In this document: positions 32,241 through 49,537 of the stretch, piece after piece
Numbering within the stretch: position 1 is the stretch's first letter
Layout of the letters: each line of letters opens with the position of its first letter
Assembly (NCBI RefSeq): GCF_003177035.1
Contig: NZ_CP029488.1
Location: 992,001 to 1,056,000, forward strand
Length of the DNA stretch: 64,000 nt
Direction: 5' to 3'
Source of the DNA: Salinisphaera sp. LB1
Lineage (GTDB): Bacteria > Pseudomonadota > Gammaproteobacteria > Nevskiales > Salinisphaeraceae
Notes under the pieces: generated by a model
Database searches by the model: none
Told to the model about the DNA's origin: nothing
Seen by the model: the letters and a program-made list of their open reading frames with translations, nothing else
Position numbers and translations under genes: made by a program

Positions 32241-32330
32241 GAGGCAACCCGCGGCGCAACCCCACGGGTGTAAAGCCACCACATTGCCGACAAATGCACG
32301 CAGGCGGTGGTTGGTCGTTGAAGGGCGCGG

Positions 32331-33557
32331 GTTCGTTGGCATTTCACGTTTTCAGTCCGCCAATGGACGCCAAAGGCGCCAATGGCGGACTGGGTTCGAG
32401 ACCGCTATGGTTTCGAGGCGCCACGTGACCTGTCTCTTCGTTCTTTAAGGCATTTATCCGCAGATCGACACAGATTTACGCAGATGGCGGTTAGTCATTT
32501 GGGGGCACTGGTTCGATCGCGGCGCGAACGGCTGCCTGCGCTTTGTTCTCCGCGGGGCTTGTTCCACTTTGCGCCCATCCGACGCCGTCGCCGGCTCGCG
32601 CCTCGAATCTGCTACGCCGCGAAAGCAAAACCGAATCTGCGTACATCTGCGTTGATCTGCGGACCGTTTTCTTCGCCAAACGAAGCCCGAAAAGCATAAC
32701 GGCGTCGCTCATCCGTCAGGTCGAAATACCAGTCCGCCATTGGCGTAATTCGCGTTCATTTGCGGACTCGATTTTGTGACATCCGTGGCTTCGGGGCGCC
32801 GCATGACTGGCTCGCTTCGTTCCTTAAGGCATTTGTCCGCAGATCAACGCAGATGTACGCAGATAGCGGTTAGTCGTTAGGGACACTAGCGCGATCGCGG
32901 CGCAAATCGCCACTGACGCTTCGTTCCCCAAAAGAGCTTTCGAGTGAGGCGTTCCGGCCGACTCGATCGCTCGTTCGCGCCTCGAATCCGCTACGCCGCG
33001 AAAGCACAACCGCATCTGCGTAATCCGTGAAATCTGCGGATCGTTTTCTTCGACGAACGAAGCCCGAAAAGCACAACGGCGCCGCTCATCCGTCAGGTCG
33101 AAATGCCAGTCCGCCATTGGCGTAATTCGCGTTCATTTGCGGACTCGATTTTGTGACATCCGTGGCTTCGGGGCGCCGCATGACTGGCTCGCTTCGTTCC
33201 TTAAGGCATTTGTCCGCAGATCAACGCAGATGTACGCAGATAGCGGTTAGTCGTTAGGGACACTAGCGCGATCGCGGCGCAAATCGCCACTGACGCTTCG
33301 TTCCCCAAAAGAGCTTTCGAGTGAGGCGTTCCGGCCGACTCGACCGCTCGTTCGCGCCTCGAATCCGCTACACCACGAAAGCACAACCGCATCTGCGTAA
33401 TCTGTGAAATCTGCGGATCGTTTTCTTCGACGAACAAAGCCCGAAAAGCACAACGGCGCCGCTCATCCGTCAGGTCGAAATACCAGTCCGCCATTGGCGT
33501 ACTTCGCGTTCATTTGCGGACCGTTTTCTGCGCCGAACGAAGCCCAAAAAGCACAAC
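32331..33557 (+). repeat. Repeat array A (1227 bp)
   Basis: Fills the space between the prfC 3' end and the ppx stop codon. It consists of a diverged outer unit (32331-32740), two near-identical units with an exact 377-bp period (32741-33117, 33118-33494) and a truncated unit (33495-33557). Each full unit has a triplet of CGCAGAT heptamers (starts 32838, 32848, 32858; again 33215, 33225, 33235) and, about 170 bp on, an inverted triplet of ATCTGCG-type heptamers (33014, 33023, 33032). In the outer unit the triplets begin at 32459, 32469, 32479 and 32635, 32645, 32655. Array B at 48182 is the same element in reverse orientation. Confidence 0.9.
32741..33494 (+). repeat. Tandem 377-bp units of array A
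   Basis: Two copies differing at only a few bases. Each can be read on the minus strand as a 97-codon frame (32824-33117 and 33201-33494); see the rejected list for why these are not called as genes. Confidence 0.9.
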
Positions 33558-33563
33558 GCTAGC
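33558..33563. repeat. IS481 target-site duplication, left copy
   Basis: GCTAGC, identical to 34593-34598, fitting the NCTAGN target of IS481. The transposase stop codon (complement 33559-33561) lies in this flanking copy. Confidence 0.85.
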
Positions 33564-34506
33564 TGTGTAAAGCCACCAGGTTGTTCAGGCCGAGGGTGCT
33601 GATGGGTGTGTGGTAGTCGAGACTGGCATGGGGGCGATGCCAGTTATAGTCATGCAGCCAGTGGGGCAGATGGGCGGCACGCTGATCGGCATTGTCATAG
33701 GCGCGAGCATAGGCCCATTCGTGCAGCGCGGTCTGGATCAGCCGCTCGGCTTTGCCGTTGGTGCGCGGCCGGTAGGGCCGTGTCCTCTTGTGTTTGAGCC
33801 CGAGTCGCCGACAGGCCTTGGCGAAGACAGCCGACTTGTAACAGCCGCCGTTATCGGTCAGCACGCGGTCGAATCGTACGCCCAGGTGCCGGTAATAGCG
33901 CAAAGCGGCTATCAGGGCGCGAACGGCACTCGGTCCCGTTTCATCCGGCCAGATTGTCGCGTGACTGACGCGGCTGTGATCGTCGATGGCCACGTGGACA
34001 TGGTCCCAGCCTGCGCCGCGTGAACGTCCGGCTTGTCGATTGCCGGTCACGCGGTGACCGGGGCGCTCGAAGCGGCCGAGCTTCTTGATATCGAGATGCA
34101 GCAGATCGCCGGGTGCCTCGCGGGTATAGCGCTTGACCGGCGGCGCGGGATCCAGCGCGGACAGTCGGTTCAGGCCGGCTCGCTGAAGCACGCGTGCGAT
34201 CGTGGTCACGGGCACGCCCAGTTCGCGACTGATCGCGCGATAGATACGCCGCTCACGCCGCAAGGCCACGATCCGCTGCCGGGTTGCCTCGGATAGCCGA
34301 TGGGGGCAACGAGCCGGTCGCGAACTGCGTTCATACAAGCCGGACTGACCGTGCTCGCGATATCGGGCCAGCCACTTGTAAGCGGTCCGCGCGCTCACGC
34401 CCATGGCCTGCGCCGCTTCGACCGGGCGCTGACCATGTTGAAGGATTCGACGGACCAACAGGTCTCGACCATGAACGGTCAAACGCGCATTCTTGTGGGT
34501 GTTCAT
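33559..34506 (-). CDS. IS481-family transposase
   Basis: 315 aa from ATG (MNTHKNARLTVHG) with GGAG 8 bp upstream. N-terminal helix-turn-helix (PVEAAQAMGVSARTAYKWLARYREHG), second HTH region, then the DDE core: D in LLHLDIKKLG, D in VLTDNGGCYKS and E in TNGKAERLIQTALHEWAY, with the typical WHDYNWHRPH-type C-terminus. The final serine codon spans the element end, and the TAG stop comes from the duplicated target, so the reading frame closes outside the element. Confidence 0.94.
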   Translation of the reverse strand: MNTHKNARLTVHGRDLLVRRILQHGQRPVEAAQAMGVSARTAYKWLARYREHGQSGLYERSSRPARCPHRLSEATRQRIVALRRERRIYRAISRELGVPVTTIARVLQRAGLNRLSALDPAPPVKRYTREAPGDLLHLDIKKLGRFERPGHRVTGNRQAGRSRGAGWDHVHVAIDDHSRVSHATIWPDETGPSAVRALIAALRYYRHLGVRFDRVLTDNGGCYKSAVFAKACRRLGLKHKRTRPYRPRTNGKAERLIQTALHEWAYARAYDNADQRAAHLPHWLHDYNWHRPHASLDYHTPISTLGLNNLVALHS

Positions 34507-34592
34507 CCGGGTCACTCCTGAAGCTTGAAGGATTCGACACCCATCAGTTTCAGGGCGGTCGGCTCGGATGAACAACCTACTGAAAGATCACA
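33564..34592 (-). mobile_element. IS481-family insertion sequence (1029 bp)
   Basis: Ends are TGTG...CACA with imperfect inverted repeats of about 24 bp sharing TGTG and AGGTTGTTCA. Flanked by a perfect 6-bp GCTAGC duplication. It contains one transposase gene and no passenger gene. It sits exactly at the ppx stop codon, between ppx and array A, and both flanks are intact, so it looks like a simple and relatively recent insertion. Confidence 0.92.
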
Positions 34593-34598
34593 GCTAGC
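34593..34598. repeat. IS481 target-site duplication, right copy
   Basis: GCTAGC, matching 33558-33563. The ppx stop codon TAG (complement 34594-34596) is inside this copy. Confidence 0.85.
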
Positions 34599-36120
34599 GA
34601 CCGCTCGCCGCCTCCGGGATCGTCGTTTCCACGAGATCGAGGGTGAGCCCCGCCTTGGCCAGACGTTCGCTCTCGTGCTCCAGATCGGCCCGGGTGAGCG
34701 GGCGCTCGGCCAGCCAGTCGGCATCGACCGAAACGGTGAGCGTGGCATCGCCGTGCGCGAGCGTCACCGGCGGTCGCGTGGCCGGATTGCGCCCGCGATG
34801 CAGAATCACGGCGATGCGTAGCGCCAGCACGATATCCCGGGTTCGAGCCTGCCAGGCGGACGGCAGCGTATTGATCAGTTCGGTACGCAGGCGTCCGCGG
34901 TGCAGGCGCACGATGGTCGCCAGCAGGTGCTGGTCCATCTGCGAGAAGCCGCGGATATCGGCGTTGTTGAGCAAATACTCGCCGTGCTTGTGATAAGCCC
35001 GATGCGCCACAGCCAGGCCGATTTCGTGCAGCATGGCCGCCCAGCGCAACACCCGGGCCGCCTCCGCCATGCCCTCCGGGAGCTGATCGCCCTGGTGGCC
35101 GGATCGCCAGAGCCGAGCCGCGGTTTCGGCCACGCGCCGGCCGTGATCGCGATCGATGACGAAACGATGCGCAGCATCGTCGACGCCGTCGTCGCGCGAG
35201 TCGTGCGCCGACAGGCGGCCCAGCAGGTCGCTGATCACCCCTTCCCGCAACGCCTTGTCCGAGACCTGCATGGCGGTCACGCCAAGGCTTTCGAATATGC
35301 CGGCAAGCACCGCCAGACCACCGGCGAAGATCGCGCGGCGTTCGCTCGAGACCCCGTCCGGGGCCAGCTTGTCCACGGAGCCCGCCTTGCACAGACGCCG
35401 CGCGAGCTTGGCCAGCGCCTCGCTCGTGATCGTCGCCCCGGGCGCGTCCGCGTCGACCGCGCGCGCGATCGACTTGATGCTGCCGGAGGCCCCCAGCGCC
35501 ACCGACCAGCCCAGTTCGCGGTAATCGTACGCCAGCGGCTCCAGCGCCAGGCGCGCCTCCGTGACCGCCGCCTTCCACTTTGCCTTGTCGACACGCCCGT
35601 CGGCAAAGAAGCGCGTGGTGTGTGTAACCGCCCCGAGCGCCACGCTCTCCGCCCGGCGCACCTGGGCACCACGACCAATCACCAGTTCGGTCGAGCCGCC
35701 GCCGATATCCACCACGAGCCGCTGCGCGTCAACGGCTTCCAGGTCTTCGGCCACCCCGGCATAGATCAGGCGGGCCTCTTCGACCCCGTAGATGATCTCG
35801 ATCGGGTGCCCCAACGCGGCCTCGGCGCGGGCGATGAATTCATCGGCGCCCCGAGCCTGGCGCAGGGTATTGGTCCCGACCACACGCACCCGGGCCTCGT
35901 CCAGCTGGGCCAGCCGCTGGCCGAAGCGGGCCAGACAATCGAGCGCGCGCTGCTGGGTTGCCGCATCGATCCGGCCGTCGGCCGAAAGCCCGCCCGCCAG
36001 TCGTACCGACTCCTTGATGCGATCCAGTACGCGCCTCTGGCCCTGCTCGGCCCGGACGATAAGCATGTGAAAACTGTTGGAACCGAGGTCGACGGCGGCG
36101 ACCGTGACGGGCAGATTCAT
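34594..36120 (-). CDS. ppx: Exopolyphosphatase/pppGpp phosphohydrolase
   Basis: 508 aa. Processively releases phosphate from inorganic polyphosphate and may act on pppGpp. ASKHA-fold ATPase motifs VAAVDLGSNSFHMLIV and LVVDIGGGSTELVIG, catalytic glutamate region IIYGVEEARLIYAG, and a C-terminal HD-like helical domain (AAMLHEIGLAVAHRAYHKHGEY). Length fits Ppx. The ppk kinase partner is not here. The IS481 element lies directly at the stop codon but leaves the coding sequence intact. Confidence 0.95.
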   Translation of the reverse strand: MNLPVTVAAVDLGSNSFHMLIVRAEQGQRRVLDRIKESVRLAGGLSADGRIDAATQQRALDCLARFGQRLAQLDEARVRVVGTNTLRQARGADEFIARAEAALGHPIEIIYGVEEARLIYAGVAEDLEAVDAQRLVVDIGGGSTELVIGRGAQVRRAESVALGAVTHTTRFFADGRVDKAKWKAAVTEARLALEPLAYDYRELGWSVALGASGSIKSIARAVDADAPGATITSEALAKLARRLCKAGSVDKLAPDGVSSERRAIFAGGLAVLAGIFESLGVTAMQVSDKALREGVISDLLGRLSAHDSRDDGVDDAAHRFVIDRDHGRRVAETAARLWRSGHQGDQLPEGMAEAARVLRWAAMLHEIGLAVAHRAYHKHGEYLLNNADIRGFSQMDQHLLATIVRLHRGRLRTELINTLPSAWQARTRDIVLALRIAVILHRGRNPATRPPVTLAHGDATLTVSVDADWLAERPLTRADLEHESERLAKAGLTLDLVETTIPEAASGR

Positions 36121-36232
36121 ACGGCGGGGCTTTTCAAGTCGCAGTTCATGCGACTATCTTAAGCAGCTTGGGCAGGGGTTGCGAGGGCACGGCTTGACGA
36201 GCACGACAACGGACGGCACAAGCCCGACAGCC

Positions 36233-36826
36233 ATGGCGCTGGCCCAACGGGCGGCGACACCGCCCCGCCTGCGCAGCTACCGCCTGCTCATCATCGTCGC
36301 CGTTGCTCTGGCGGCGGGCGGATGCGCCAGCCAGGGGCTGCAGCGGGGCCATTCCGACCTCAGCCGGGCCGGTGGCGGCTCGAAGTATCGCGACAAAAGC
36401 GAAAGCGCCGAATCCGACCTCGGTATGCGCGCCGGCGCGACAGCCAGGCTGGACGCCGCGCTGCATCGGGTCTATGAACGCTGGGCGGGCACGCCGTATC
36501 GTTACGGCGGCCAGAGTCGCAACGGCGTTGATTGTTCGAGCTTCGTGCGCCAGACGGTGGATCGGGTCGAGTCCTACGAACTGCCGCGTACCGCCGTGGC
36601 ACAGGCGCAGGTCGGGATGTCGGTCCCGCGCCGGAACCTCAAGGCCGGGGATCTGGTGTTCTTCAAGACCGGTGCCGTGTCGCATCATGTCGGCATCTAC
36701 CTCGGCCGCGGGCGCTTCATGCATGCCTCGAGCAGCCAGGGCGTGACCATCTCGCGCCTGGACAATGTGTACTGGCGCAATCACTACTGGCAAGCACGGC
36801 GCATTCCCGGCAATCGCCAGATGTGA
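36233..36826 (+). CDS. NlpC/P60 lipoprotein endopeptidase
   Basis: 197 aa from ATG (MALAQRAATP); upstream in-frame starts at 36194 (TTG) and 36077 are possible. Lipobox LAAGGC after a hydrophobic signal, then an NlpC/P60 domain (about 85-190). Catalytic cysteine in GVDCSSFVRQ, histidine in SHHVGIYLG and a further polar residue downstream. Such proteins cleave D-Glu-mDAP links in peptidoglycan (Spr/MepS-like). Divergent from ppx. Confidence 0.9.
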   Translation: MALAQRAATPPRLRSYRLLIIVAVALAAGGCASQGLQRGHSDLSRAGGGSKYRDKSESAESDLGMRAGATARLDAALHRVYERWAGTPYRYGGQSRNGVDCSSFVRQTVDRVESYELPRTAVAQAQVGMSVPRRNLKAGDLVFFKTGAVSHHVGIYLGRGRFMHASSSQGVTISRLDNVYWRNHYWQARRIPGNRQM

Positions 36827-36913
36827 TCGCCGATCGCGGCGACACGCCGCGGCCCGTGTTCGGCACACCCTTCACGATAGCGCGCCCCGCTACCCTGCGG
36901 TAAACCAAAAAAA

Positions 36914-36938
36914 GCCCGCGACGGTTACCGTCGCGGGC
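36914..36938 (-). terminator. Intrinsic terminator of the desaturase gene
   Basis: An 11-bp perfect stem (36914-36924 with 36928-36938), 3-nt loop, then an A-run at 36906-36913 that is a U-run on the minus strand. Confidence 0.85.
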
Positions 36939-36971
36939 CGATGATGACCGACGTCTCGGTTCTTCGAGCCC

Positions 36972-38177
<1,206 letters not shown>

Positions 38178-38326
38178 TGCTTGGCGAGCCTCGTCAGAAA
38201 TCGTCAGTCTTTTAGCCGCAGTGTACAAACGTGCACAGCGTGTCCGTGAGTATGCGGAGGTTGAGAATCGTTTTCAAGAACTCGCCCTCTTATTCGTCCA
38301 TGCCACCGGTGCCGGGCCGCGGATCG

Positions 38327-39163
38327 TCATGTATCCGCGTCGGTTTCCAGGCCCGCGAAATCGAACAGCGCGCCATCGGCCATCTGCGACGGCGCGATTC
38401 GCGTCATCGATCGGAAGATGCGCTCACTGCGCCCCGGGTCCTCGGCCTCCCAGGCCGCCAGCATCGCCTTGACGTTCTGGCGCGCCAGATTCTCCTGCGA
38501 GCCGCACAGATTGCAGGGAATGATCGGGAACTGCCTGAGCCGGGAATATTTCTCGATCTCGGCCTCGGCGCAGTACGCCAGCGGCCGGATCACGACGTTG
38601 TCGCCGTCGTCGGACTTCAGCTTCGGCGGCATGGCCGCCAGGCGCGCACCGTGGAACATGTTCAGGAACATGGTTTCCACGATGTCGTCGCGGTGATGGC
38701 CGAGCGCGATGCGGGTGAAGCCGTTCTCGCGCGCATAGCGATACAGAATGCCGCGGCGCAGACGCGAGCACAGTCCGCACATGGTCGCACCCGGTGCGAT
38801 CTTCTCCGTGACCACCGAGTAGGTGTCGCGCTCGATAATGTCGTAGTCGACGCCAAGCCCGGCCAGGTAATTCGGCAGAATATGCTCGGGAAAACCGGGC
38901 TGTTTCTGATCGAGATTGACCGCCCGCAGGGTGAACGACACCGGGGCGACCTGCTGCAGATGAAGCAGCGTATCCAGCAGGGTATAGCTGTCCTTGCCGC
39001 CGGACAGGCAGACCATGATGCGCTCGCCGTCGCGGATCATGCCGTAATCGACGATCGCCTGGCCGGCCTGGCGACGCAGCCGCTTGGTCAGTTTTTCGGC
39101 CGCATTCGAACCGGGCGTCAGTCCGGTCGGGGCACGGGTATCGAGAACGGGAATATCGCTCAT
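38327..39163 (-). CDS. ttcA: tRNA 2-thiocytidine synthetase TtcA
   Basis: 278 aa. ATP pyrophosphatase-type enzyme that makes s2C32 in tRNA using an Fe-S cluster. PP-loop [13 protein letters not shown], and the cluster/thiol pairs CGLC and CNLC, at the expected distances. [16 protein letters not shown] is a further TtcA signature. A 149-bp gap follows before the desaturase start. Confidence 0.96.
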
Positions 39164-39255
39164 GGCGCGCCGCGCGCTGGAAATGAATCGACGCTCATTG
39201 TACCGGCGCGTCGATCGGCGCCGCTACGCCCGGCCGGCGCGCGCCGGCAACGAAC

Positions 39256-40134
39256 TCAGACACGCGCGACGAGCTGGTCCATCACGCGCCGCGCCTGGGC
39301 CGCATAACCGCCGCCGAACAGACGCGCGTGATTGAGCAGGTGATGCAGTTGATACAACGGCCGCCGGATCTCGCGATAGCCCGGCGATGCCGGCCAGGCG
39401 CCCCAGTAGGCTTCGTAGAAATCGGGGGAGAAGCCCCCGAACAATTCAGTGAGCGCGAGATCGGTCTCGCGATCGCCATAATAGACGGCGGGATCGTAGA
39501 TCACCGGCCGGCCGGCACGGTCGGCCCCGGCGTTGCCGCCCCAGAGGTCGCCGTGCAGCAGCGAGGCCTCGGGTTTATGGCCAGCCAGCAGATCCGGCAG
39601 GACAGCCAGCAGCCGATCACCCGCGCGCGCGAGTTCGGGATAATCCGGCGCGAGCGCGTCGAGCATTACGGCCAGGCGATTCTCGCGCCAGAACTCAGTC
39701 CAGTCGGCATGGCGGGCATTGTGCTGGGTGTTCGGGCCGAGCGTGTTGTCACGCTCCCAGCCGTGGCGCGTGGCCACGATGCCATGCATCTCGGCCAGCC
39801 CTTCGCCAAGCCGCGTCATCGACGCCCGCGTCGGCCGCGCCAGTTCGAGATATTCGAGCACGATGAAGGCGGTATCAGCGCTGGCCGCGACCGCGATCGG
39901 CTCGGGTACCCGCAGCAGCGTGGCCTGTCGCAGCTCCGACAGCCCGGCCGCCTCGGCCTGGAACATGGCGTGCCGGTCGGCCCGGTTGGTCTTGACGAAG
40001 AAACGGCGCTCGCCGTCGGAAACCACATGTGCCTGGTTGATGTCGCCGCCGAGCGCCGTGCGGTGATCGACCACGGTGAACGGGCGCCCGGTGGCCGCGC
40101 CGATCGCGGATTCGATGGCCGCCCAGTCGCTCAT
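39256..40134 (-). CDS. Fructosamine-3-kinase-like protein
   Basis: 292 aa. Protein-kinase-like fold: GGDINQAHVV, FVKTNRADRHAMFQAEAAGL, catalytic LLHGDLWGGNAGA and metal-binding YDPAVYYGDRETDLA. Family enzymes phosphorylate ketosamine adducts on proteins or metabolites so they break down (deglycation). Starts with ATGA overlap at the xni stop, so the two genes are coupled. Confidence 0.92.
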   Translation of the reverse strand: MSDWAAIESAIGAATGRPFTVVDHRTALGGDINQAHVVSDGERRFFVKTNRADRHAMFQAEAAGLSELRQATLLRVPEPIAVAASADTAFIVLEYLELARPTRASMTRLGEGLAEMHGIVATRHGWERDNTLGPNTQHNARHADWTEFWRENRLAVMLDALAPDYPELARAGDRLLAVLPDLLAGHKPEASLLHGDLWGGNAGADRAGRPVIYDPAVYYGDRETDLALTELFGGFSPDFYEAYWGAWPASPGYREIRRPLYQLHHLLNHARLFGGGYAAQARRVMDQLVARV

Positions 40135-41009
40135 ATCGCCTCACTCTCGGCCTCGAGGCCGAGTTGACCGCGCAGCCGCGGGCCCACGCCGTGTTCGTCG
40201 CACAGTTGTTGCAGACGCGCCGTGTCGGGCGCCCGTCGGGCGATGTCGCGCTGCGCGGCATCGAGCGCGATATCGCGCACCACGGTGGCCAGGCGCCGCG
40301 ACAATCGCGCCTGCTCGGCATGGGTCTCGAGCCGGGTCGCCAGCGCTTTCGCACCGCGCAGGTCGGCCGCGCGCACGGCGTCGATATCGGCCAGCAGAGT
40401 GTCGATATCGGCAAAGCGCGACAATAACGCCGCCGCCGTCTTGGCGCCGATGCCGGGCACGCCCGGGATGTTGTCGACCGTGTCGCCGACCAGGGCGAGA
40501 TAATCGGGGATCGCGGCCGGCGCCACGCCGAAACGCGCGCGAATCGCAGCCGCGTCGTAGCGGGTTTCGCGGGCGTAGTCCCAGAGGATGTCGCCCGAGC
40601 CCAGAATCTGGGCCAGATCCTTGTCCGAGGTCACCATCGTGACCGGTTCGTCGGCCGCGGCGGCCAGCGTAGCGATCAGATCGTCCGCTTCATACCGGGG
40701 GCTGGACAGGGTTGCCACGCCGAGCGCCTCGGTGATCGCCCGGCAGACGCCGATCTGATTCACCAGGTCCGCCGGCGGCTGTTCGCGGTTGGCCTTGTAA
40801 TCGGCGAAGAACTCGTTGCGAAACGAATGGGTCAGCGATTCGTCGAATGCGGCCGCGACGTATGTCTCGTCAGTGGTCGCGAGCAAGGCAGTCAGAAACC
40901 CGACATAGCCATGCACGGCGTTCAGCGGGCGGCCATCGGCGCCGGTGATAGAGTCCGGCAGCGCATGAAACGCCCGGAAGATATAGACACTGGCGTCGAT
41001 CAGCAGCAT
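40131..41009 (-). CDS. xni: 5'-3' exonuclease/flap endonuclease (Xni-like)
   Basis: 292 aa. Resembles the N-terminal nuclease domain of DNA polymerase I, standing alone. Metal-binding acidic residues in LLIDASVYIFR, YEADDLIATLA and TSDKDLAQIL, then the helix-hairpin-helix GVPGIGAKTAAALL. Starts at ATG, 68 bp from the divergent secreted-protein gene. Unlike E. coli Xni it keeps the YEADD/TSDKD metal site, so it may be a closer functional match to the PolA nuclease. Confidence 0.9.
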   Translation of the reverse strand: MLLIDASVYIFRAFHALPDSITGADGRPLNAVHGYVGFLTALLATTDETYVAAAFDESLTHSFRNEFFADYKANREQPPADLVNQIGVCRAITEALGVATLSSPRYEADDLIATLAAAADEPVTMVTSDKDLAQILGSGDILWDYARETRYDAAAIRARFGVAPAAIPDYLALVGDTVDNIPGVPGIGAKTAAALLSRFADIDTLLADIDAVRAADLRGAKALATRLETHAEQARLSRRLATVVRDIALDAAQRDIARRAPDTARLQQLCDEHGVGPRLRGQLGLEAESEAI

Positions 41010-41077
41010 GTGGGTAGTGTACTGACCGACGCCCGGCCTGCGCCATGCGCTACCGGCATCCCATTCGGAGACGCTCT

Positions 41078-41848
41078 ATGATTCGCATGATATGGCGCGC
41101 GCTCGCCGTGGCTGCCCTGATCGGCCTCACCGGCATGGCAAGCGCCGTTCAGGCCGATACCACCCTGACCTACGTGGGCGCCAGCGGCCAGTACAAGGTC
41201 TATATCACGCCCGATGCCGTGCGCATCGACGGCGACGGCAGCGGCTGGCAGCTGTACAAACGCGGCGACCCGGCGATCATCTCGGTGTCGCCGAAGGATC
41301 AGACCTATACCCGGCTCGACAAGAACACGGCCGGCGAAATTCGCCACCAGATGAATGCGTTGCGCGCCCGAATCGACCATCGCCTGCAACAGCTGCCCCC
41401 GGATCAACGCCGGGCCGCCCGCGCGGCCATGGCCGAAAAAATTCCCGGACTGAACGGCAAACCGCAGTCCATCGGACTGGATCATACCGGGGCCACCGAC
41501 AAGGTGGATGGCATTGCCTGCCAAGTCATCCAGGTCGTTCGCGGCGGCCGGCCGGCGCACAAGATGTGCGTGGCCAGCGCCGAGGCGCTGGGGCTGTCCA
41601 GCGATAGCTTCCATACCGTGAAATCGATGTTCGCCTTGTTGCGCGACATGCTCGCCGGCACCGGCCTGGAAGGCATCGGCCTGCCATACCGTAATCTTTC
41701 GGGCATGCCGATTCGCTTCCACGACAGCCTGTCCGGTGAACAGCGCACCCTCACCGCGTTGAACCACAAACCCATTGCCGACAGCCGTTTCGAGATTCCC
41801 GGCAACTATGTCGAGAAGAAACCCGAGGCCCCGTCCGCCAGTCGTTAA
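41078..41848 (+). CDS. Secreted protein, possibly DUF4412-like
   Basis: 256 aa from ATG with GGAG 8 bp upstream. Signal peptide (MIRMIWRALAVAALIGLTG, cleavage after VQA). The rest is soluble: YVGASGQYKVYITPDAVRID, GDPAIISVSPKDQTYTRLDK, a basic helical segment, and two cysteines (DGIACQVIQ and HKMCVAS) that could form a disulfide. The pattern of reading out a printed value then a threshold-like region is reminiscent of DUF4412 proteins. Function unknown. Confidence 0.7.
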   Translation: MIRMIWRALAVAALIGLTGMASAVQADTTLTYVGASGQYKVYITPDAVRIDGDGSGWQLYKRGDPAIISVSPKDQTYTRLDKNTAGEIRHQMNALRARIDHRLQQLPPDQRRAARAAMAEKIPGLNGKPQSIGLDHTGATDKVDGIACQVIQVVRGGRPAHKMCVASAEALGLSSDSFHTVKSMFALLRDMLAGTGLEGIGLPYRNLSGMPIRFHDSLSGEQRTLTALNHKPIADSRFEIPGNYVEKKPEAPSASR

Positions 41849-41931
41849 AGCCACAGCGCGAACAACAACTGGCCTGGAATATCAATTCCCATTCGAAATA
41901 AATGAAAAGCATATTCTTATACCCTCGCTAT

Positions 41932-41976
41932 CTAACCGAAACTATGGTTAGACTTTAGGCACCGGTGAGTCACCGG
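41932..41976. promoter_or_regulatory. Two inverted repeats in the pnt leader
   Basis: CTAACC-N8-GGTTAG (41932-41951) and, 10 bp on, CCGGTG-N3-CACCGG (41962-41976), about 75-120 bp before pntAA. They could be operator sites or leader RNA hairpins. The preceding 41880-41930 is AT-rich and likely contains the promoter. Confidence 0.45.
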
Positions 41977-42051
41977 CCAGGGAGATACGGCCGCCCGCCG
42001 GCCGACATATAACAACACCATCGACGACTCGAACACGGGCCGAACAAGAAT

Positions 42052-43251
42052 ATGACCGTATCGATTGCTGTAGCGAAGGAGACGGCAGCGGGCGAGAAGC
42101 GCGTTGCCATGGTGCCCAAGATCGCCGCGAAGCTCACCAAGCTCGACGTGGCGCTCACCGTCGCCAAGGGCGCTGGCGAGGGCAGCCGCATTCCCGACGA
42201 ATCCTACGACGAGCGCGTGACGCTGTCGGGGCGGGCCGACGAGATCTACGCCGCCGATGTGGTGCTCGCGGTCAATGCGCCTGAAGTCAAACAAATCAAC
42301 AAAATGAAGAAGGGGTCGGTGCTGATCAGCTTCGTCCAGGGGCACAACAACCCCGATGTGGTCGAGGCGCTGCAGAACAACGGCATCACCTGCTTTGCCA
42401 TGGAACTGGTCCCGCGCATCAGCCGGGCCCAGTCGATGGATGCGCTGTCTTCCCAGGCCAATGCCGCCGGCTACAAGGCGGCATTGATTGCCGCCAATGC
42501 GCTGGAACGCTTCCTGCCCATGCTGACCACGGCCGCCGGCACCATCCGGCCGGCCAAGGTACTGGTCATCGGCGCGGGCGTGGCCGGCCTGCAGGCCATC
42601 GCCACCGCCGGGCGCCTCGGCGCCAAGGTCTACGGCTACGATGTGCGCACCGACACCAAGGAACAGGTGGAATCGCTGGGCGCCGAGTTCCTGGTGGCCA
42701 AGGGGATCAAGGCCGAGGCCGACGGCGGCTATGCGCGCGAACTGACCGACGAGGAAAAAGCCCAGCAGCAACAGATGCTGGTCGACAACATGGCCGATGC
42801 CGACGCCGTGATCACCACGGCCGCCGTGCCCGGCAAGCCGGCGCCCAAGATCGTGTCCAAGGCCATGGTCGAGGCCATGAAGCCCGGCGCAGTGCTGGTC
42901 GATCTGGCGGCAGCCGGCGGCGGCAACTGCGAGCTGACCAAGCCCGACGAGATCGTTACCCATGGCGCGGTCACCATCCACGGCCCGTCCAACGTACCGT
43001 CCCTGCTGGCCGAGCACGCCAGCGAAATGTATGCCCAGAACGTATTCAACTTCCTGCAGCTGATCGTGGTCGAGGACGAAGGCCAGGACGACGCCAAGCC
43101 GGGCGAAAAGAAACACAAGCTCGCCTTCGACTGGGAGGACGAGATCCTGGCCAAGTCGGTGCTGACCCGCGACGGCGAACTGGTCAACGAAACGGTCAAG
43201 GCCGCGCTCGACGCCGCCGTTCAAGCGCGCAACGCTGAACAGAACACTTAG
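42052..43251 (+). CDS. pntAA: NAD(P) transhydrogenase subunit alpha 1
   Basis: 399 aa. NAD(H)-binding domain I: RVAMVPKIAAKL, SFVQGHNNPDVVEAL, RISRAQSMDALSSQANAAGY and the Rossmann loop VLVIGAGVAGLQAIATA. Soluble, no membrane helix; the membrane part is split off as the next gene. Proton-translocating transfer of hydride from NADH to NADP+ supplies NADPH. First gene of pntAA-pntAB-pntB. Confidence 0.97.
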   Translation: MTVSIAVAKETAAGEKRVAMVPKIAAKLTKLDVALTVAKGAGEGSRIPDESYDERVTLSGRADEIYAADVVLAVNAPEVKQINKMKKGSVLISFVQGHNNPDVVEALQNNGITCFAMELVPRISRAQSMDALSSQANAAGYKAALIAANALERFLPMLTTAAGTIRPAKVLVIGAGVAGLQAIATAGRLGAKVYGYDVRTDTKEQVESLGAEFLVAKGIKAEADGGYARELTDEEKAQQQQMLVDNMADADAVITTAAVPGKPAPKIVSKAMVEAMKPGAVLVDLAAAGGGNCELTKPDEIVTHGAVTIHGPSNVPSLLAEHASEMYAQNVFNFLQLIVVEDEGQDDAKPGEKKHKLAFDWEDEILAKSVLTRDGELVNETVKAALDAAVQARNAEQNT

Positions 43252-43281
43252 ATTCGAGAAAGCATTCGGGGAGAGACGATC

Positions 43282-43566
43282 ATGATTACGGGTTTTGTAG
43301 CGCTGTATATCTTCATGCTGGCCGCCTTCACCGGCTACGAGATCATCGGCCGTGTACCCAGTATCCTGCACACGCCGCTGATGTCGGGCTCGAACTTCGT
43401 TCACGGCATTGTGCTGGTCGGCGCGATGGTCGCGCTCGGCAACGCCGACGGTTTCTGGGAGACCCTGATCGGCTTCGTGGGCACGATGCTGGCCGCGGGC
43501 AACGCGGTGGGCGGTTATGTCGTGACCGAGCGCATGCTCGAAATGTTCAAGTCCTCCAAGGACTGA
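43282..43566 (+). CDS. pntAB: NAD(P) transhydrogenase subunit alpha 2
   Basis: 94 aa, three transmembrane helices. ITGFVALYIFMLAAFTGYEIIGRVPSILHTPLMSG is the family signature. Membrane domain IIa of the split transhydrogenase. 30 bp after pntAA and 34 bp before pntB; AAAGGGG precedes pntB. Confidence 0.97.
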   Translation: MITGFVALYIFMLAAFTGYEIIGRVPSILHTPLMSGSNFVHGIVLVGAMVALGNADGFWETLIGFVGTMLAAGNAVGGYVVTERMLEMFKSSKD

Positions 43567-43600
43567 TCCAAGAACAACCACGATAATAAAGGGGTCACCT

Positions 43601-44998
43601 ATGGGTTTCTGGGGCTTTCTGGTCAACGCGAGTTATTTCGTCGCCGCGGTGCTGTTCATCTACGGCCTGAAGCAGATGGGCTCGCCGCGCACCGCGCGCA
43701 ACGGCATCAAGGTCGCCGGCGCCGGCATGCTGGTAGCGACGATCTTCACCTTCTTCCATCCGGCCATTCACGCGAGCGCCTGGCACTACATCCTGATGAT
43801 CGTGGCCATCGCCATCGGCGGGTCCGCGGCCTGGATCTCGGGCAAACGCGTGCAGATGACGGCCATGCCGCAAATGGTCGCGCTGTACAACGGCATGGGC
43901 GGCGGCGCGGCCGCGGCCATCGCGCTGGTAGAGATGTACTCGCACGAGGCGTTCTCGGCCGGTTTCGGGCTGATCATCATGGCCGTTGTGGGCGCGCTGA
44001 TCGGCGGCGTGTCGTTCGCCGGCTCGCTGATCGCCTGGGCCAAGCTGGAAGGCAAGCTGACCCGCGCGTTCCGCATCCCGGGCCAACAGATTGCGACGCT
44101 GGCGCTGGCCGTGCTGATCGTGATCTTCGGCTGGGCGATCGTGGCGTCCGATTTCTCGGCGCCGGTGCTGGTCACGGTGTTCTTCTTCATGAGTCTGGCC
44201 TTCGGCGTGTTGCTGACGATCCCGATCGGCGGCGCCGACATGCCGGTCGTGATCTCGATGTACAACGCCTTCACCGGTCTGGCGGTGGCCTTCGAAGGCT
44301 ATGTCATCGACAACACGGCGATGATCATCGCCGGCATGGTGGTGGGCGCGGCCGGTTCGCTGCTGACCTATCTCATGGCCAAGGGCATGAACCGCTCGCT
44401 GACCAACGTGCTGTTCGCCGGCTTCGGCGTGGATGAGGGCAGTCAGGCCGAAGACCCCGAGGGCGAAATGAAGTCGGTCGAGGCCTTCGACGCCTCGGCG
44501 TCCATGGCCTATGCCGATTCCCTGATCATCGTGCCGGGCTACGGTCTCGCCGTGGCGCAGGCCCAGCACAAGCTCTGGGAGTTCGTTCAGGCGCTGCAGA
44601 AGGAGCACGGCGTGGACGTGAAGTTCGCCATCCATCCGGTGGCGGGCCGCATGCCCGGGCACATGAACGTGCTGCTGGCCGAAGCGGGCGTGCCCTACGA
44701 CCTGATCTACGACCTGGAAGAAATCAATCCCGAGTTCGGCGCGGCCGATGCCGCGCTCGTGATCGGCGCCAACGACGTGGTCAACCCGGCCGCCAAGGAG
44801 GACAAGGGCAGCCCCATCTACGGCATGCCGATCCTCAACGTCGATGCCGCGCGCGAGGTCTACGTGATCAAGCGCGGCAAGGGCACGGGCTTTTCCGGCG
44901 TGACCAACCATCTGTTCTTTGGCGAAAACACGCGCATGGTATTCGGCGACGCCAAGCAGGTTTGTGCCGACCTGACCAGCGGGCTCAAGCAGATCTAG
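43601..44998 (+). CDS. pntB: NAD(P) transhydrogenase subunit beta
   Basis: 465 aa. N-terminal eight or nine helices (domain IIb), then the NADP(H)-binding domain III: IVPGYGLAVAQAQHKLWEF, HPVAGRMPGHMNVLLAEAGVPY, IGANDVVNPAAKEDKGSPIYGMP and VIKRGKGTGFSGVTN. Completes the proton-pumping enzyme. An intrinsic terminator follows 30 bp after the stop. Confidence 0.97.
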   Translation: MGFWGFLVNASYFVAAVLFIYGLKQMGSPRTARNGIKVAGAGMLVATIFTFFHPAIHASAWHYILMIVAIAIGGSAAWISGKRVQMTAMPQMVALYNGMGGGAAAAIALVEMYSHEAFSAGFGLIIMAVVGALIGGVSFAGSLIAWAKLEGKLTRAFRIPGQQIATLALAVLIVIFGWAIVASDFSAPVLVTVFFFMSLAFGVLLTIPIGGADMPVVISMYNAFTGLAVAFEGYVIDNTAMIIAGMVVGAAGSLLTYLMAKGMNRSLTNVLFAGFGVDEGSQAEDPEGEMKSVEAFDASASMAYADSLIIVPGYGLAVAQAQHKLWEFVQALQKEHGVDVKFAIHPVAGRMPGHMNVLLAEAGVPYDLIYDLEEINPEFGAADAALVIGANDVVNPAAKEDKGSPIYGMPILNVDAAREVYVIKRGKGTGFSGVTNHLFFGENTRMVFGDAKQVCADLTSGLKQI

Positions 44999-45027
44999 TC
45001 GCGCTCCGGCCGTCGAATCGTGCTCGC

Positions 45028-45053
45028 AAGCCGCCCATCCGGGCGGCTTTTTT
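45028..45053 (+). terminator. Intrinsic terminator of the pnt operon
   Basis: A 9-bp perfect stem (45028-45036 with 45041-45049), 4-nt loop, followed by a six-T run (45048-45053). Confidence 0.92.
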
Positions 45054-45099
45054 CATGTCCCGATGCAGCCATCGACGATCGGCCGTATCCTCGACGGTC

Positions 45100-45693
45100 A
45101 TGCATGAGCTCGCCCCACTCATCGCCCGCCTGCAGCGCCATCGCGCACGGCGCAATCCGTTGCGTCGGCGACTCAAGCGCGCCGCGGTGGCCGCACTGCT
45201 GCGCGATTCGCGCCAGGGCGCCGAAGTCCTGGTGGTCGAACGCGCGCATCGCCCGGGCGATCCCTGGTCCGGCGACATGGCCCTGCCCGGCGGGCGCATC
45301 GAGGCCGTCGACGAGGCCAGCGCGTCGCGCGCGGCCTGTCGCGAAACCGCCGAGGAAATTGGCGTGGCAATCGATCGATCACTCGGCATTGGCCGGCTCT
45401 GCGACCAGCTCACACTCGATCATCGTCGGCGCCGACCGATGGTGATATCGCCGTTCGTTTATCGCTGGCCGCGCGATGCGACGATCACGACGAACGCCGA
45501 AATCGCCGACTGGACCTGGGTACCGCTGGCCTGGCTCGACGAGCCCGCGAATCGGGGGCGGTTCACCTGGCGCGTTCGCGGCGTGCCCAAGTCGATGCCC
45601 TGCTACGACTGCGGCGATGGTCGCCGGATCTGGGGCCTGACCCTGCTCATGCTCGACGAGCTGCGCCGCGCCGGCCCCGGGGGGCGCGGATGA
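45100..45693 (+). CDS. Nudix hydrolase, CoA pyrophosphatase type
   Basis: 197 aa from ATG (MHELAPLIARLQ). Nudix box GGRIEAVDEASASRAACRETAEEIGV with catalytic REXXEE, preceded by RAHRPGDPWSGDMALPGG, the CoA-specific motif found in NudL/PCD1-like enzymes. Cleaves CoA to 3',5'-ADP and phosphopantetheine. A longer frame to 44962 runs into pntB and is not used. Confidence 0.88.
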   Translation: MHELAPLIARLQRHRARRNPLRRRLKRAAVAALLRDSRQGAEVLVVERAHRPGDPWSGDMALPGGRIEAVDEASASRAACRETAEEIGVAIDRSLGIGRLCDQLTLDHRRRRPMVISPFVYRWPRDATITTNAEIADWTWVPLAWLDEPANRGRFTWRVRGVPKSMPCYDCGDGRRIWGLTLLMLDELRRAGPGGRG

Positions 45694-45974
45694 CGGCATC
45701 CAAACTGCCCGGCCGCGTCACATCCTGTATCGCCGCATCAGGCGCTGCGGTCGCGAATACAGCATCGAATACACAACCAATTGTGCACAAATCCACAGTG
45801 TTGCCTTCTTGTCGCAAACCCACGCGCCGCGCATAAGCCGCGCAAAATACGACCGCAAGCATCTGATTAAAATATATATTTATTAACACTTTCATGACGG
45901 CGGCAATATTAGCTTGTTCCTATGAATGAACCGTCCCGATTTCATCCACGTACTTATCCACAGGCGCTAGAGCG
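45694..45974. other. DnaA-box and AT-rich intergenic region before priA
   Basis: 281 bp with no convincing gene. It contains a perfect DnaA box TTATCCACA (45954-45962), a 7/9 match 12 bp upstream (45942-45950), further 7/9 matches at 45781-45789 and 45789-45797, and a 10-bp palindrome TTGTGCACAA (45781-45790). A stretch with no G or C covers 45866-45886, unusual for this GC-rich DNA. An 82-codon minus-strand frame (45647-45895) is probably chance. Could be a DnaA-regulated priA promoter or an origin-like element. Confidence 0.6.
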
Positions 45975-48176
45975 TTGAGCGAGCAGGCTTCCCCCGTTGT
46001 TCGAGTCGCCGTCCCCGTGCCGCTTTACGGCACTTTCGACTACCTTATCGCGCCGGATGCGGCGGTATCGGTGGGCGCGCGTGTCCAGGTTCGCTTCGGG
46101 CGCCGACCGCTGGTGGGCGTGATCGTGGCCGTCGATGTGGCAAGCCAGGTCGCGGTGGACAAGCTCAAACCCGTGTTGCGGGTGCTGGACGACACCCCCT
46201 TGTTCGACGACGCGCTGCTCAAGCTGCTGCGCTGGACCGCCCGTTATTATCACCATCCGCTCGGCGATACGCTGGCCACTGCGTTGCCGGCGGCCCTGCG
46301 GCGGACCCGGAGCGCTGCCGACAGCGATAGTACCCGCAATCGCGGCTGGCAGGCCGTGGCCGAGCCACCGGCCGATGCCGAGACCACACTCCCCCGCGCG
46401 CCGCGCCAGCGAGAGCTGCTCGCTGTCATTCGCGCGGCCGATAACGCCGTGGCCCACAGCACATTGCTGGCCCGCTTTCCCGGCGCCGGGCGGCCATTGC
46501 AGGCGCTGGCCGAGCGCGGCCTGATCGAGGCCATCGAGCTGCCGGGCGGGCTGGAGACCGGCAGCGCCGGCGCCCCGCCGCCGCTGACCGCCGACCAACA
46601 GGCGGTCGTGGATCGGCTGCGCGAGGCCAATGGCTTTGCGCCGGCGTTGATCGAAGGCGTGACCGGTTCCGGCAAGACCGAGATCTATTTCCAGCGCATG
46701 GCCGACACCCTGGCTGCGGGCCGCCAGGCCCTGTTTCTGGCGCCGGAGATCGGCCTCACGCCGCAGCTCATCGATCGCCTGCGCGCGCGCTTTGCGGCGG
46801 CGATCGGCGTGCTGCATTCCCAGCGCAGCGACGGCGAACGGGCCGATGTCTGGCGCGCGGCGGCGGCCGGCGAGGCCGACATCGTGATCGGCACGCGCTC
46901 GGCCGTGTTCACGCCCATGCCGCGGCTCGGCCTGATCATCGTCGACGAAGAGCACGACGGCTCCTACAAGCAGGGCGACGGGCTGCGCTACCACGCCCGC
47001 GATGTGGCCTTGAAGCGCGCCCAGGACGCCGCTATTCCCGTTCTGCTGGGCAGTGCCACGCCCGCGCTGGAAACCCTGCACAACGCCCGCGCCGGGCGCT
47101 TCGATCATCTCCGGCTGGCCCGGCGCGCCACCGGTGCGGCCCTGCCGGCGATCCGGCTGATCGACATCCGCTCGCGCCCGCTCGACGGCGGCCTGTCCGA
47201 CCCGCTGATCAACCGCATCCGGCCGCATCTGGAGGCCGGCAATCAGGTGATGATCTTCATCAACCGGCGCGGCTTCGCCCCAGCCCTGCTCTGCCACGAC
47301 TGCGGCTGGAGCGCGCCCTGTCATCGCTGCGATGCGCCGATGACTATCCATGGCGCGATGAGCCGGCTGATCTGTCACCACTGCGGCAGTGCCGAAAATG
47401 CGCCGACCACCTGCCCATCGTGCGGCAGCGAAACGCTAGTCGCACTCGGCGCCGGCACCCAGCGCGTAGCGGGCGCGCTGCGCAGTCATTTCCCCGACGT
47501 TTCCATCGCCCGCTTCGACCGCGACAGCATGAGCCGCCGCGGCCGGCTCGAAGCCCAGCTCGCCGATGTCGCCAGCGGCAAGACGCAACTGCTGGTCGGC
47601 ACCCAGATGCTGGCCAAGGGCCACGATTTCGCGCGCCTGACCTGTGTCGGCGTACTGGATGTCGACGGCGGCCTGTTCTCGGCCGATTTCCGCGCCACCG
47701 AGCATATGGCCCAGGTCGTCACCCAGGTTGCCGGCCGTGCCGGCCGTGCCGACCGGCCGGGGGAAGTCTGGCTGCAGACGCGCAACCCCGAACACCCGAT
47801 GCTGGTACGCCTGCTGGGCGGCGGCTATCCGGGCTTCGCCGAGGCCGCGCTGGCCGAGCGCGAGGCCACCGCACTGCCGCCCTACGGTCATCTCGCCCTG
47901 CTGCGCGCCGAAGCGCACGAGCAACAATATCCCCACGCCTTTCTGGCGGCGGCCGCTGAAACGGTCCCCATGGGGGGCGAGCTGGCCTGCTGGGGGCCGG
48001 TGCCGGCCCCCATGGCCCGGCGTGCCGGCCGCTATCGCGCGCATCTGCTGCTGCACGCGGCGCGTCGGGCCCTGCTGCATCCCGTTCTCGACCGCTGGCA
48101 GAGCCAGCTCGCCGAGCTGCCGGCCGCCCGGCGCGTGCGCTGGTCGATCGATGTCGATCCGCAGGATCTGTTGTAG
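45975..48176 (+). CDS. priA: Primosomal helicase PriA
   Basis: 733 aa from a TTG start 13 bp after the DnaA box. N-terminal DNA-binding domain (VRVAVPVPLYGTFDYLI), then a superfamily 2 helicase: Walker A GVTGSGKTEIYF, Walker B LIIVDEEHDGSYK and LLGSATPALETL. Eight cysteines (CHDCGWSAPCHRC, CHHCG, CPSCG) bind two zinc ions. It reloads the replisome at stalled forks. Its stop is 5 bp before array B. Confidence 0.96.
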   Translation: MSEQASPVVRVAVPVPLYGTFDYLIAPDAAVSVGARVQVRFGRRPLVGVIVAVDVASQVAVDKLKPVLRVLDDTPLFDDALLKLLRWTARYYHHPLGDTLATALPAALRRTRSAADSDSTRNRGWQAVAEPPADAETTLPRAPRQRELLAVIRAADNAVAHSTLLARFPGAGRPLQALAERGLIEAIELPGGLETGSAGAPPPLTADQQAVVDRLREANGFAPALIEGVTGSGKTEIYFQRMADTLAAGRQALFLAPEIGLTPQLIDRLRARFAAAIGVLHSQRSDGERADVWRAAAAGEADIVIGTRSAVFTPMPRLGLIIVDEEHDGSYKQGDGLRYHARDVALKRAQDAAIPVLLGSATPALETLHNARAGRFDHLRLARRATGAALPAIRLIDIRSRPLDGGLSDPLINRIRPHLEAGNQVMIFINRRGFAPALLCHDCGWSAPCHRCDAPMTIHGAMSRLICHHCGSAENAPTTCPSCGSETLVALGAGTQRVAGALRSHFPDVSIARFDRDSMSRRGRLEAQLADVASGKTQLLVGTQMLAKGHDFARLTCVGVLDVDGGLFSADFRATEHMAQVVTQVAGRAGRADRPGEVWLQTRNPEHPMLVRLLGGGYPGFAEAALAEREATALPPYGHLALLRAEAHEQQYPHAFLAAAAETVPMGGELACWGPVPAPMARRAGRYRAHLLLHAARRALLHPVLDRWQSQLAELPAARRVRWSIDVDPQDLL

Positions 48177-48181
48177 CCGAC

Positions 48182-49398
48182 GTTGTGCCTTTTGTGTTTC
48201 GGTCATCGCAGAAGACCGTCCGCAAATGAACGCGAAATACGCCAATAGCGGACTGGCATTTCGACCTGATGGATGAGCGGCGCCGTCGTGCTTTTCGGGC
48301 TTCGTTCGGCGAAGGAAATGATCCGCAGATTTCACAGATTACGCAGATGCGGTTGGGCTTTCGCGGCATAGCCGATTCGAGGCGCGAACCGGCGACGGAG
48401 TCGGCCAGCACGCCGAACTCGAAGGCTATCGTTGGGAACAAAGCACAGGCAGCCGTTCGCGCCCAGATCGAGCTAGCGTCCCTCACGACTAACCGCCATC
48501 TGCGTGAATCTGTGTCGATCTGCGGATAAACGCCTTAAGGAACGACGACAAAGGTCACGGGGAGCCCGAAACCAGGTCGGTCGCGAACCGGTCCGCAAAT
48601 GAACGCGAAATACGCCAATGACGGACTGGCATTTCGACCTGACGGATGAGCGGCGCCGTTGTGCTTTTCGGGCTTCGTTCGTCGAAGAAAATGATCCGCA
48701 GATTTCGCAGATTACGCAGATGCGGTTGTACTTTCGCGGCATAGCAGATTCGAGGCGCGAACCGGCGACGGAGTCGGCCAGCACGCCGAACTCGAAGGCT
48801 ATCGTTGGGAACAAAGCACAGGCAGCCGTTCGCGCCCAGATCGAGCTAGCGTCCCTCACGACTAACCGCCATCTGCGTGAATCGGTGTCGATCTGCGGAT
48901 AAACGCCTTAAGGAACGACGACAAAGGTCACGGGGAGCCCGAAACCAGGTCGGTCGCGAACCGGTCCGCAAATGAACGCGAAATACGCCAATAGCGGACT
49001 GGCATTTCGACCTGACGGATGAGCGGCGTCGTTGTGCTTTTCGGGCTTCGTTCGGCGAAGAAAATGATCCGCAGATTTCACAGATTACGCAGATTCGGTT
49101 GTACTTTCGCGACGTAGCGGATTCGAGGCGCTAAAAGGCGACTGAGTTGAACAAAGCTTGCAACTCGAATAACTGGTTTGGGGGCGAAGCGCGCACAGCC
49201 GTTTGCGCCACGATCGAACCAATGCTCCCAAATGACGAATCGCCATCTGCGTGCATCTGTGTTGATCTGCGGACAAATGCCTTAAGGAACGAAGAGACAG
49301 GTCAAGCGGCGCCCCGAAACCAAGGAGGCCGAGAACCCAATCCGCCATTTGCGCTTTTGCGTTGATTTGCGGACTGAAAACGTGAAATGCCAACGAAC
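48182..49398 (-). repeat. Repeat array B (1217 bp), inverted relative to A
   Basis: Begins 5 bp after the priA stop. Units start at 48221, 48594 and 48967 (exact 373-bp period), with the last, diverged unit running to 49398. Heptamer triplets again face each other, e.g. 48324, 48333, 48342 (9-bp steps) and 48498, 48508, 48518 (10-bp steps). Its outer end (49369-49398) is a perfect 30-bp reverse complement of 32331-32360, and its inner end matches array A's inner end (GCACAAC type). So the two arrays share both termini. Confidence 0.9.
48221..48966 (-). repeat. Tandem 373-bp units of array B
   Basis: Two near-identical copies. The plus-strand frame 48618-48902 (94 codons) corresponds to the 97-codon minus-strand frames of array A, showing the same element in opposite orientation. 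Confidence 0.88.
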
Positions 49399-49537
49399 CA
49401 GCGGCGACCGGCGCGACCCGGGCCTGAGCCGCGTGCCGAGACTGCGATCCAGTTTACTCGGGGCTGAAACATGGCCCGCGCCACTGGGCGGCGTTAGACT
49501 GCACGGTTTTCACCCGACCCTCTGCGTTGTTCTCGCC

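What the first reader, a model, noticed from the sequence alone, without database searches (positions are those of the whole stretch)
32331..49398. Two facing 1.2-kb repeat arrays bracket about 14.6 kb
Arrays A (32331-33557) and B (48182-49398) are the same element in opposite orientation. They have the same plan: diverged outer unit, two near-identical tandem units and a truncated inner end. They share a perfect 30-bp outer end and a related inner end. Each abuts a stop codon (ppx before the IS landed, priA). Long inverted repeats allow homologous inversion of the segment carrying ppx, desaturase, ttcA, xni, pnt and priA. The matching plan suggests duplication or gene conversion rather than chance growth.
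Basis: seen in the sequence. Interest (0 to 1): 0.75.

Follow-up and report, generated by a model that had tools for sequence, protein, structure and literature searches.

The report
Repeat arrays built from nuclease-cassette ends
The two facing repeat blocks are stacks of short non-coding units whose ends match the ends of tiny one-gene nuclease cassettes found elsewhere in the same genome and in many other bacteria, hinting at a little-described kind of selfish DNA.

Summary
In detail: two ~1.2-kb arrays, 82% identical, face each other and share an exact 31-bp outer stretch. No inversion shows in the 10 of 14 genus genomes with prfC and priA on one contig, though only two of them carry arrays. 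Array duplication or conversion is not supported: tandem doublets are 98% identical within arrays, 80-82% between them, and B's doublet is 96% identical to a solitary copy 315 kb away.

The arrays are mosaics of a 205-bp non-coding module (Q...Q') and a palindrome (P), with ends made of three copies of a 7-bp word. The same genome has two GxxExxY (PD-(D/E)XK) genes, one with P-type and one with Q-type inverted ends. Such ends flank GxxExxY genes widely: 36 of 48 loci from other Pseudomonadota beat every shuffle. Cassettes lie behind stop codons (49 of 57; random 5%), as the arrays do.

Best reading: non-autonomous, tandem-doubled relatives of GxxExxY cassettes. Mobility is inferred, not shown.

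The parts
32331..33557 (+). Array A, three Q...Q' modules separated by P palindromes, between prfC and ppx
48182..49398 (-). Array B, same plan in opposite orientation, between priA and argS
32330..32360 (+). Outer stretch identical to B's (31 bp)
   Evidence: a 22/24 match also in the third array
49369..49399 (-). Outer stretch identical to A's (31 bp)
32457..32663 (+). Module A1 (diverged outer unit)
32836..33040 (+). Module A2
   Evidence: 98.0% to A3
33213..33417 (+). Module A3
49068..49273 (-). Module B1 (diverged outer unit)
48695..48899 (-). Module B2
   Evidence: 97.6% to B3, 96% to the solitary copy in L117
48322..48526 (-). Module B3
33109..33144 (.). P palindrome (one of four in A: 32355, 32732, 33109, 33486), matching the ends of the carA/carB GxxExxY cassette
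48591..48626 (.). P palindrome (one of three found in B: 48218, 48591, 48964)
33564..34592 (-). IS481-family insertion between array A and ppx, GCTAGC on both sides
   Evidence: sequence read; transposase

Best explanation
Arrays A and B are mosaics of non-coding inverted-repeat modules whose ends are the end-sequences of GxxExxY cassettes. A GxxExxY cassette is ~460 bp: one PD-(D/E)XK nuclease-family gene between inverted ends, each end three copies of a 7-bp word (C-R-C-R-R-A-K type) every 9-10 bp. This genome has two: one between carA and carB with the P word (CGCRAAT), one between the two metH reading frames with the Q word (CGCAGAT). P and Q are the motifs of arrays A and B. Shown: structure, shared words, position behind stop codons, presence/absence between species, separate tandem doubling. 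Inferred: the nuclease recognises its own word, cuts at or beside it, and so lets both the cassette and gene-less modules be copied to sites just behind stop codons; direct P repeats then allow tandem doubling by unequal exchange.
For: P matches the carAB cassette ends (19-24; shuffles at most 14) and not the metH ends (7); 9-bp-spaced Q arms match the metH ends (17-21; shuffles at most 11) and not carAB (7-8). All 15 GxxExxY genes in the genus lie at three sites; inverted word ends on both sides by eye in 12 of 15, 11 of 13 testable by score. Outside the genus 36 of 48 beat every shuffle and 41 of 48 the 99% level; random windows 1 of 123. In 118 Q-word loci of 13 named phyla, all 5 GxxExxY genes lie within 50 bp of the word. 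Of the 27 with an inward partner, 22 are 70-281 bp, and the four of 434-467 bp all hold GxxExxY. Word covaries with protein: r 0.26, 0 of 2000 permutations. 49 of 57 cassettes start within 25 bp of a same-strand stop, random 119 of 2280. carA-carB gap 448-456 bp with cassette (5 genomes), 93-103 without (4). The arms' 2-3-nt linkers agree no better within a pair (0.62) than between loci (0.61) while words agree at 0.90, so the words rather than the stem seem kept.
Against: No movement was observed and no target-site duplication seen; the host spacer is replaced rather than split. The arrays hold no trace of a GxxExxY gene. The 10-bp-spaced Q arms of A match carAB and metH ends equally (13-15). 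G002 has 20 exact Q doublets but no PF13366 match; G009 has two genes and no exact Q doublet. In 340 kb of G065, which has three GxxExxY genes, word doublets are hardly above control (11 vs 7). Of 104 Q loci with room, 78 showed no inward partner with this detector. Twelve of 48 outside loci did not beat every shuffle; pairing the upstream flank of one locus with the downstream flank of another reaches 19.0 at its 95% point against a true median of 19.75, since words are shared. Co-inheritance alone could give the word-protein correlation. Of 8 plasmid genes 4 had ends.
Confidence: 0.5

Rival explanations
1. REP/BIME-type elements mobilised by a RAYT (Y1 transposase).
For: Inverted doublets, alternate orientation and tandem clusters are as described for BIMEs and REPINs (passages). 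RAYT-family genes (PF01797) occur in 14 of 14 genus genomes.
Against: None of 8 stretches around RAYT-family genes (L154 of G006, L155-L161 of G000) has a P or Q motif. RAYT genes occur in genomes with and without Q. REP-like GTAGGTCGG sequences are a separate repeat here, nested in the modules.
Confidence: 0.08
2. RNA-level elements: modules kept as transcript hairpins (terminator, RNase III stem, or IVS-like excision).
For: Modules fold far better than shuffles (z -4.75 for A2 sense, -7.42 for B3 + strand). Cassettes sit inside operons and resemble the 428-nt Coxiella 23S rRNA IVS with its 28-bp terminal stem (passages).
Against: Linkers between words do not co-vary across arms (0.62 vs 0.61) and word spacing differs between arms in 24 of 49 pairs. 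No Rfam match at gathering threshold. Stems follow from inverted word ends anyway.
Confidence: 0.2
3. Ordinary MITEs of an unidentified insertion sequence; GxxExxY is a passenger caught between two copies.
For: No transposition activity of GxxExxY is known from the passages and listings seen; dispersal in this genome far exceeds its two genes.
Against: The inverted-end plan holds around GxxExxY with 15 different words over many genomes, with the word tracking the protein. A passenger would not need that.
Confidence: 0.15
4. One reading: a duplicated long inverted repeat that inverts the 14.6-kb segment.
For: Inverted arms of 84-92% complementarity.
Against: No inversion in 10 of 10 testable genomes (only two with arrays); units assort against array duplication.
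Confidence: 0.05

Closest known systems
RAYT genes with REP/BIME/REPIN elements (PMC2817692, PMC3116915; passages)
   Same: A single-copy-type gene between two inverted short elements; gene-less doublets and tandem mosaics of the same elements elsewhere in the genome; element and protein change together.
   Different: Protein is PD-(D/E)XK (GxxExxY), not a Y1 transposase; ends are three spaced copies of a word rather than one imperfect palindrome; RAYT loci here carry none of these motifs.
23S rRNA intervening sequence with S23p/IVP four-helix-bundle gene (PMC4990558; passages)
   Same: Similar size (428 nt against ~460 bp) and plan: one short reading frame between inverted repeats of ~28-30 bp.
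   Different: Protein-coding intergenic sites instead of rRNA helix 45; another protein family. IVP genes outside rRNA carry 7-bp-period inverted ends in 21 of 29 cases tested.
MITEs
   Same: Short, non-coding, inverted ends, multicopy.
   Different: No target duplication or cognate transposase shown.
GxxExxY protein family TIGR04256 / PF13366
   Same: The cassette genes are members by curated score.
   Different: In the held library I found no description of its inverted word ends.

Membership tests
REP/BIME/REPIN (RAYT system) | Motif flanks RAYT genes | tested here: not met
   0 of 8 RAYT-family stretches hold P or Q
REP/BIME/REPIN (RAYT system) | Inverted doublets in tandem mosaics | tested here: met
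REP/BIME/REPIN (RAYT system) | GTAG-type foot beside a palindrome (many listed REPs) | tested here: not met
   Conserved core is TCCGCAGAT(NNA)CGCAGAT..., no GTAG
MITE | Short non-coding element with terminal inverted repeats in several copies | tested here: met
   44 units in fetched stretches of G000 and G006
MITE | Target-site duplication | tested here: inconclusive
   Empty sites compared only for the cassettes; host spacer replaced
MITE | Moved in trans by a cognate transposase | not testable with these tools
   needs an experiment
23S rRNA IVS | Lies in rRNA and carries an S23p gene | tested here: not met
   Arrays lie between protein genes; PF05635 has 0 matches in G000
GxxExxY (TIGR04256) | Score above curated cut-off | tested here: met
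   Three genus genes 139-141 bits, cut-off 35; arrays themselves encode none
GxxExxY cassette with inverted word ends (proposed here) | Array ends carry the word of a cassette in the same genome | tested here: met
   P and 9-bp-spaced Q specific; 10-bp-spaced Q of A not specific
Invertible segment | Both orientations among relatives | tested here: not met
   One orientation in 10 of 10 testable genomes, two with arrays

The most novel reading that the evidence does not exclude
GxxExxY cassettes are a separate class of bacterial mobile element: a minimal Holliday-resolvase/Cas4-like nuclease paired with ends of three identical 7-bp words, in which the word can be swapped as the protein changes, targeting the position just behind stop codons. 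Gene-less modules parasitise it, and 23S rRNA IVS/IVP genes are a parallel class with 7-bp-period ends.
Probability: 0.35. Interest if true: 0.88.

Novelty: new variant of a known kind. Interest (0 to 1): 0.7.

Why it matters
Tri-word repeats of this sort are scattered through bacterial genomes and usually go unexplained; the exact 29-bp Q pattern alone was found in 13 named phyla in a capped scan. Tying them to a common nuclease family without assigned function makes both testable: the words predict the binding site of each protein. It would also give a second, unrelated counterpart to the RAYT/REPIN system and a possible origin for 23S rRNA intervening sequences.

Tried and rejected

Limits of the counts: the 30 loci were the best-scoring ones (2 of 30 dropped for short flanks); the 20 were picked by me for variety. 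The 57 cassettes were kept for end score of 13 or more and include 11 orthologues from the genus. In one search the word search itself imposes a C-R-C-N-V-A pattern; 52 of 78 genes gave four or more copies, and for L297 it returned CGCGAAG where the eye reads CGCAAAG. L269 has the same ends as L301 and may be the same species. In one search the script failed to place 5 of 14 carAB and 2 of 13 metH sites; G001 (420 bp) and G004 (192 bp) metH gaps hold decayed-looking Q ends.

Full report
OBSERVATION. Arrays A and B are real and at the stated places. They are collinear copies in opposite orientation. Each contains P, a ~36-bp palindrome (GTCCGCAAATGAACGCGAATTACGCCAATGGCGGAC in A), and Q...Q', a ~205-bp module that starts TCCGCAGATCAACGCAGATGTACGCAGAT and ends with the inverted counterpart. 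The outer 31 bp are identical. A 22/24 match to the 24-bp outer end also lies in a third array at 3741.7 kb, but there inside the array beside a REP-like sequence.

WHERE IT IS. The window is G000:C1:992001-1056000 of a 4.14-Mb genome. Named loci place its genus as Salinisphaera (G013's 170,943-bp contig 12 has the length of S. japonica YTM-1 NZ_AYKG01000012). The doublet TCCGCAGATNNACGCAGAT occurs 38 times in G000, 35 in G003, 26 in G013, 20 in G002, 18 in G006, 4 in G010 and 0-1 in the other eight; the reversed control gives 0 in all 14. The long module was seen in G000 (14 units at 7 places) and G006 (30 units) among the stretches fetched.

HOW THE ARRAYS GREW. A2/A3 are 98.0% and B2/B3 97.6% identical; A against B doublets are 80-82%; A1/B1 are 73%. 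B2 and B3 are 96% identical to one solitary unit in L117, 315 kb away. So B's unit was copied between distant sites more recently than it shared an ancestor with A's, and the doublings in A and B are separate. The third G000 array has the same plan (99% doublet, 52% outer unit). In G006 the prfC/ppx site holds two units, 80% alike, and the priA side also starts with a module before the contig ends. In G006 the ppx stop codon TGA lies inside P (read). Other genomes have short spacers at prfC/ppx or other genes at priA/argS.

NO INVERSION SEEN. prfC and priA keep strand and order in 10 of 14 genomes where both are on one contig; the rest have them on separate contigs or lack a prfC match. Only G000 and G006 carry arrays, so this says little about inversion within the strain.

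THE LINK. PF13366 finds 15 GxxExxY genes in 9 of 14 genus genomes, confirmed as TIGR04256 for three of them. They lie at three sites: carA|carB (5), between the two metH frames (9, two of them contig-end pieces of one genome) and one in G008 (carAB and metH names). The carAB cassettes end in CGCRAAT words, the metH ones in CGCAGAT/CACAGAT words, the G008 one in CGCAAAG words. In G000 the first is the P word and the second the Q word. By local alignment P scores 19-24 against carAB ends and 7 against metH ends; the 9-bp-spaced Q arms score 17-21 against metH ends and 7-8 against carAB; the 10-bp-spaced arms of A score 13-15 against both, and that of B 13 against metH and 8-10 against carAB (shuffles at most 14). 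In G005 and G007 the metH-site gene has lost its upstream end and its ExK lysine reads R.

GENERALITY. In 28 GxxExxY loci from a Pseudomonadota-wide search, 24 have inverted flanks scoring above all 600 shuffles and 26 above the 99% level; in a second set of 20, 12 above all 1000 and 15 above 99%. Random windows from the same loci: 1 of 123 above all shuffles. Fifteen words were read from 52 genes, all of C-R-C-R-R-A-(T/G/A) form, with high agreement within an element (most above 0.85). Inward Q pairs fall into 70-281 bp without the gene (22) and 434-467 bp with it (4), plus one of 640 bp. Cassettes have a median length of 460 bp and begin within 25 bp of a same-strand stop codon in 49 of 57 cases, against 5.2% of random positions.

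MECHANISM. Shown: ends, words, sites, species differences. Inferred: word recognition by the nuclease and movement. That words, not pairing, are kept is suggested by 49 inward pairs in G000 and G006: linkers agree 0.62 within pairs and 0.61 between loci, and 24 of 49 pairs differ in word spacing between arms; words at 0.90 leave little room to vary, so this is not decisive. The modules do fold strongly as RNA. The fold is PD-(D/E)XK, nearest SSO0001 with Hjc resolvases and restriction enzymes behind it. A resolvase-like enzyme acting on extruded inverted ends is attractive but untested.

AGAINST. G002 has Q without a GxxExxY match, G009 genes without exact Q. G065 shows no dispersal. No target duplication, no observed movement. 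The host spacer is replaced at carAB and metH, which could equally follow transfer of a whole operon segment.

KNOWN KINDS. The arrangement works like RAYT/REPIN/BIME (passages of PMC2817692 and PMC3116915) and like the rRNA IVS (passages of PMC4990558), but fails the membership features tested. Searches of the held library found no account of these ends; that is a statement about this library only.

Noticed in passing
L378-L407 (unnamed Pseudomonadota genomes): 23S_rRNA_IVP four-helix-bundle genes (PF05635) outside rRNA are also flanked by inverted tandem repeats, of 7-bp period (e.g. GTAGGCA), in 21 of 29 tested loci above all 600 shuffles.
   Followed up: partly
window 33564-34592: IS481-family element between array A and ppx, GCTAGC on both sides.
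   Followed up: partly
window 32269-32281: A solitary copy of the IS481 end TGTAAAGCCACCA between prfC and array A, apparently a remnant of another insertion.
   Followed up: no
L115 (G000:C1:3741.9-3743 kb); L143 (G006:C53): REP-like GTAGGTCGG...CCGACCTAC sequences are nested inside modules; in G006 C53 such an insert seems duplicated together with the unit.
   Followed up: no
window 49418-49500: Between array B and argS a stretch resembles the 3' end of a methyltransferase-like gene that G006 has upstream of argS, so a deletion next to the array is likely (by eye; gene name recalled).
   Followed up: no
L303, L324: Methionine synthase is split into two reading frames (profile 5-354 and 354 onward) with the GxxExxY cassette between them; genomes without a cassette are also split, with a 119-121 bp gap.
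   Followed up: partly
L370 (Sphingomonas parapaucimobilis plasmid): GxxExxY gene wedged between fabD and fabG with 33- and 2-bp gaps, all on one strand.
   Followed up: no
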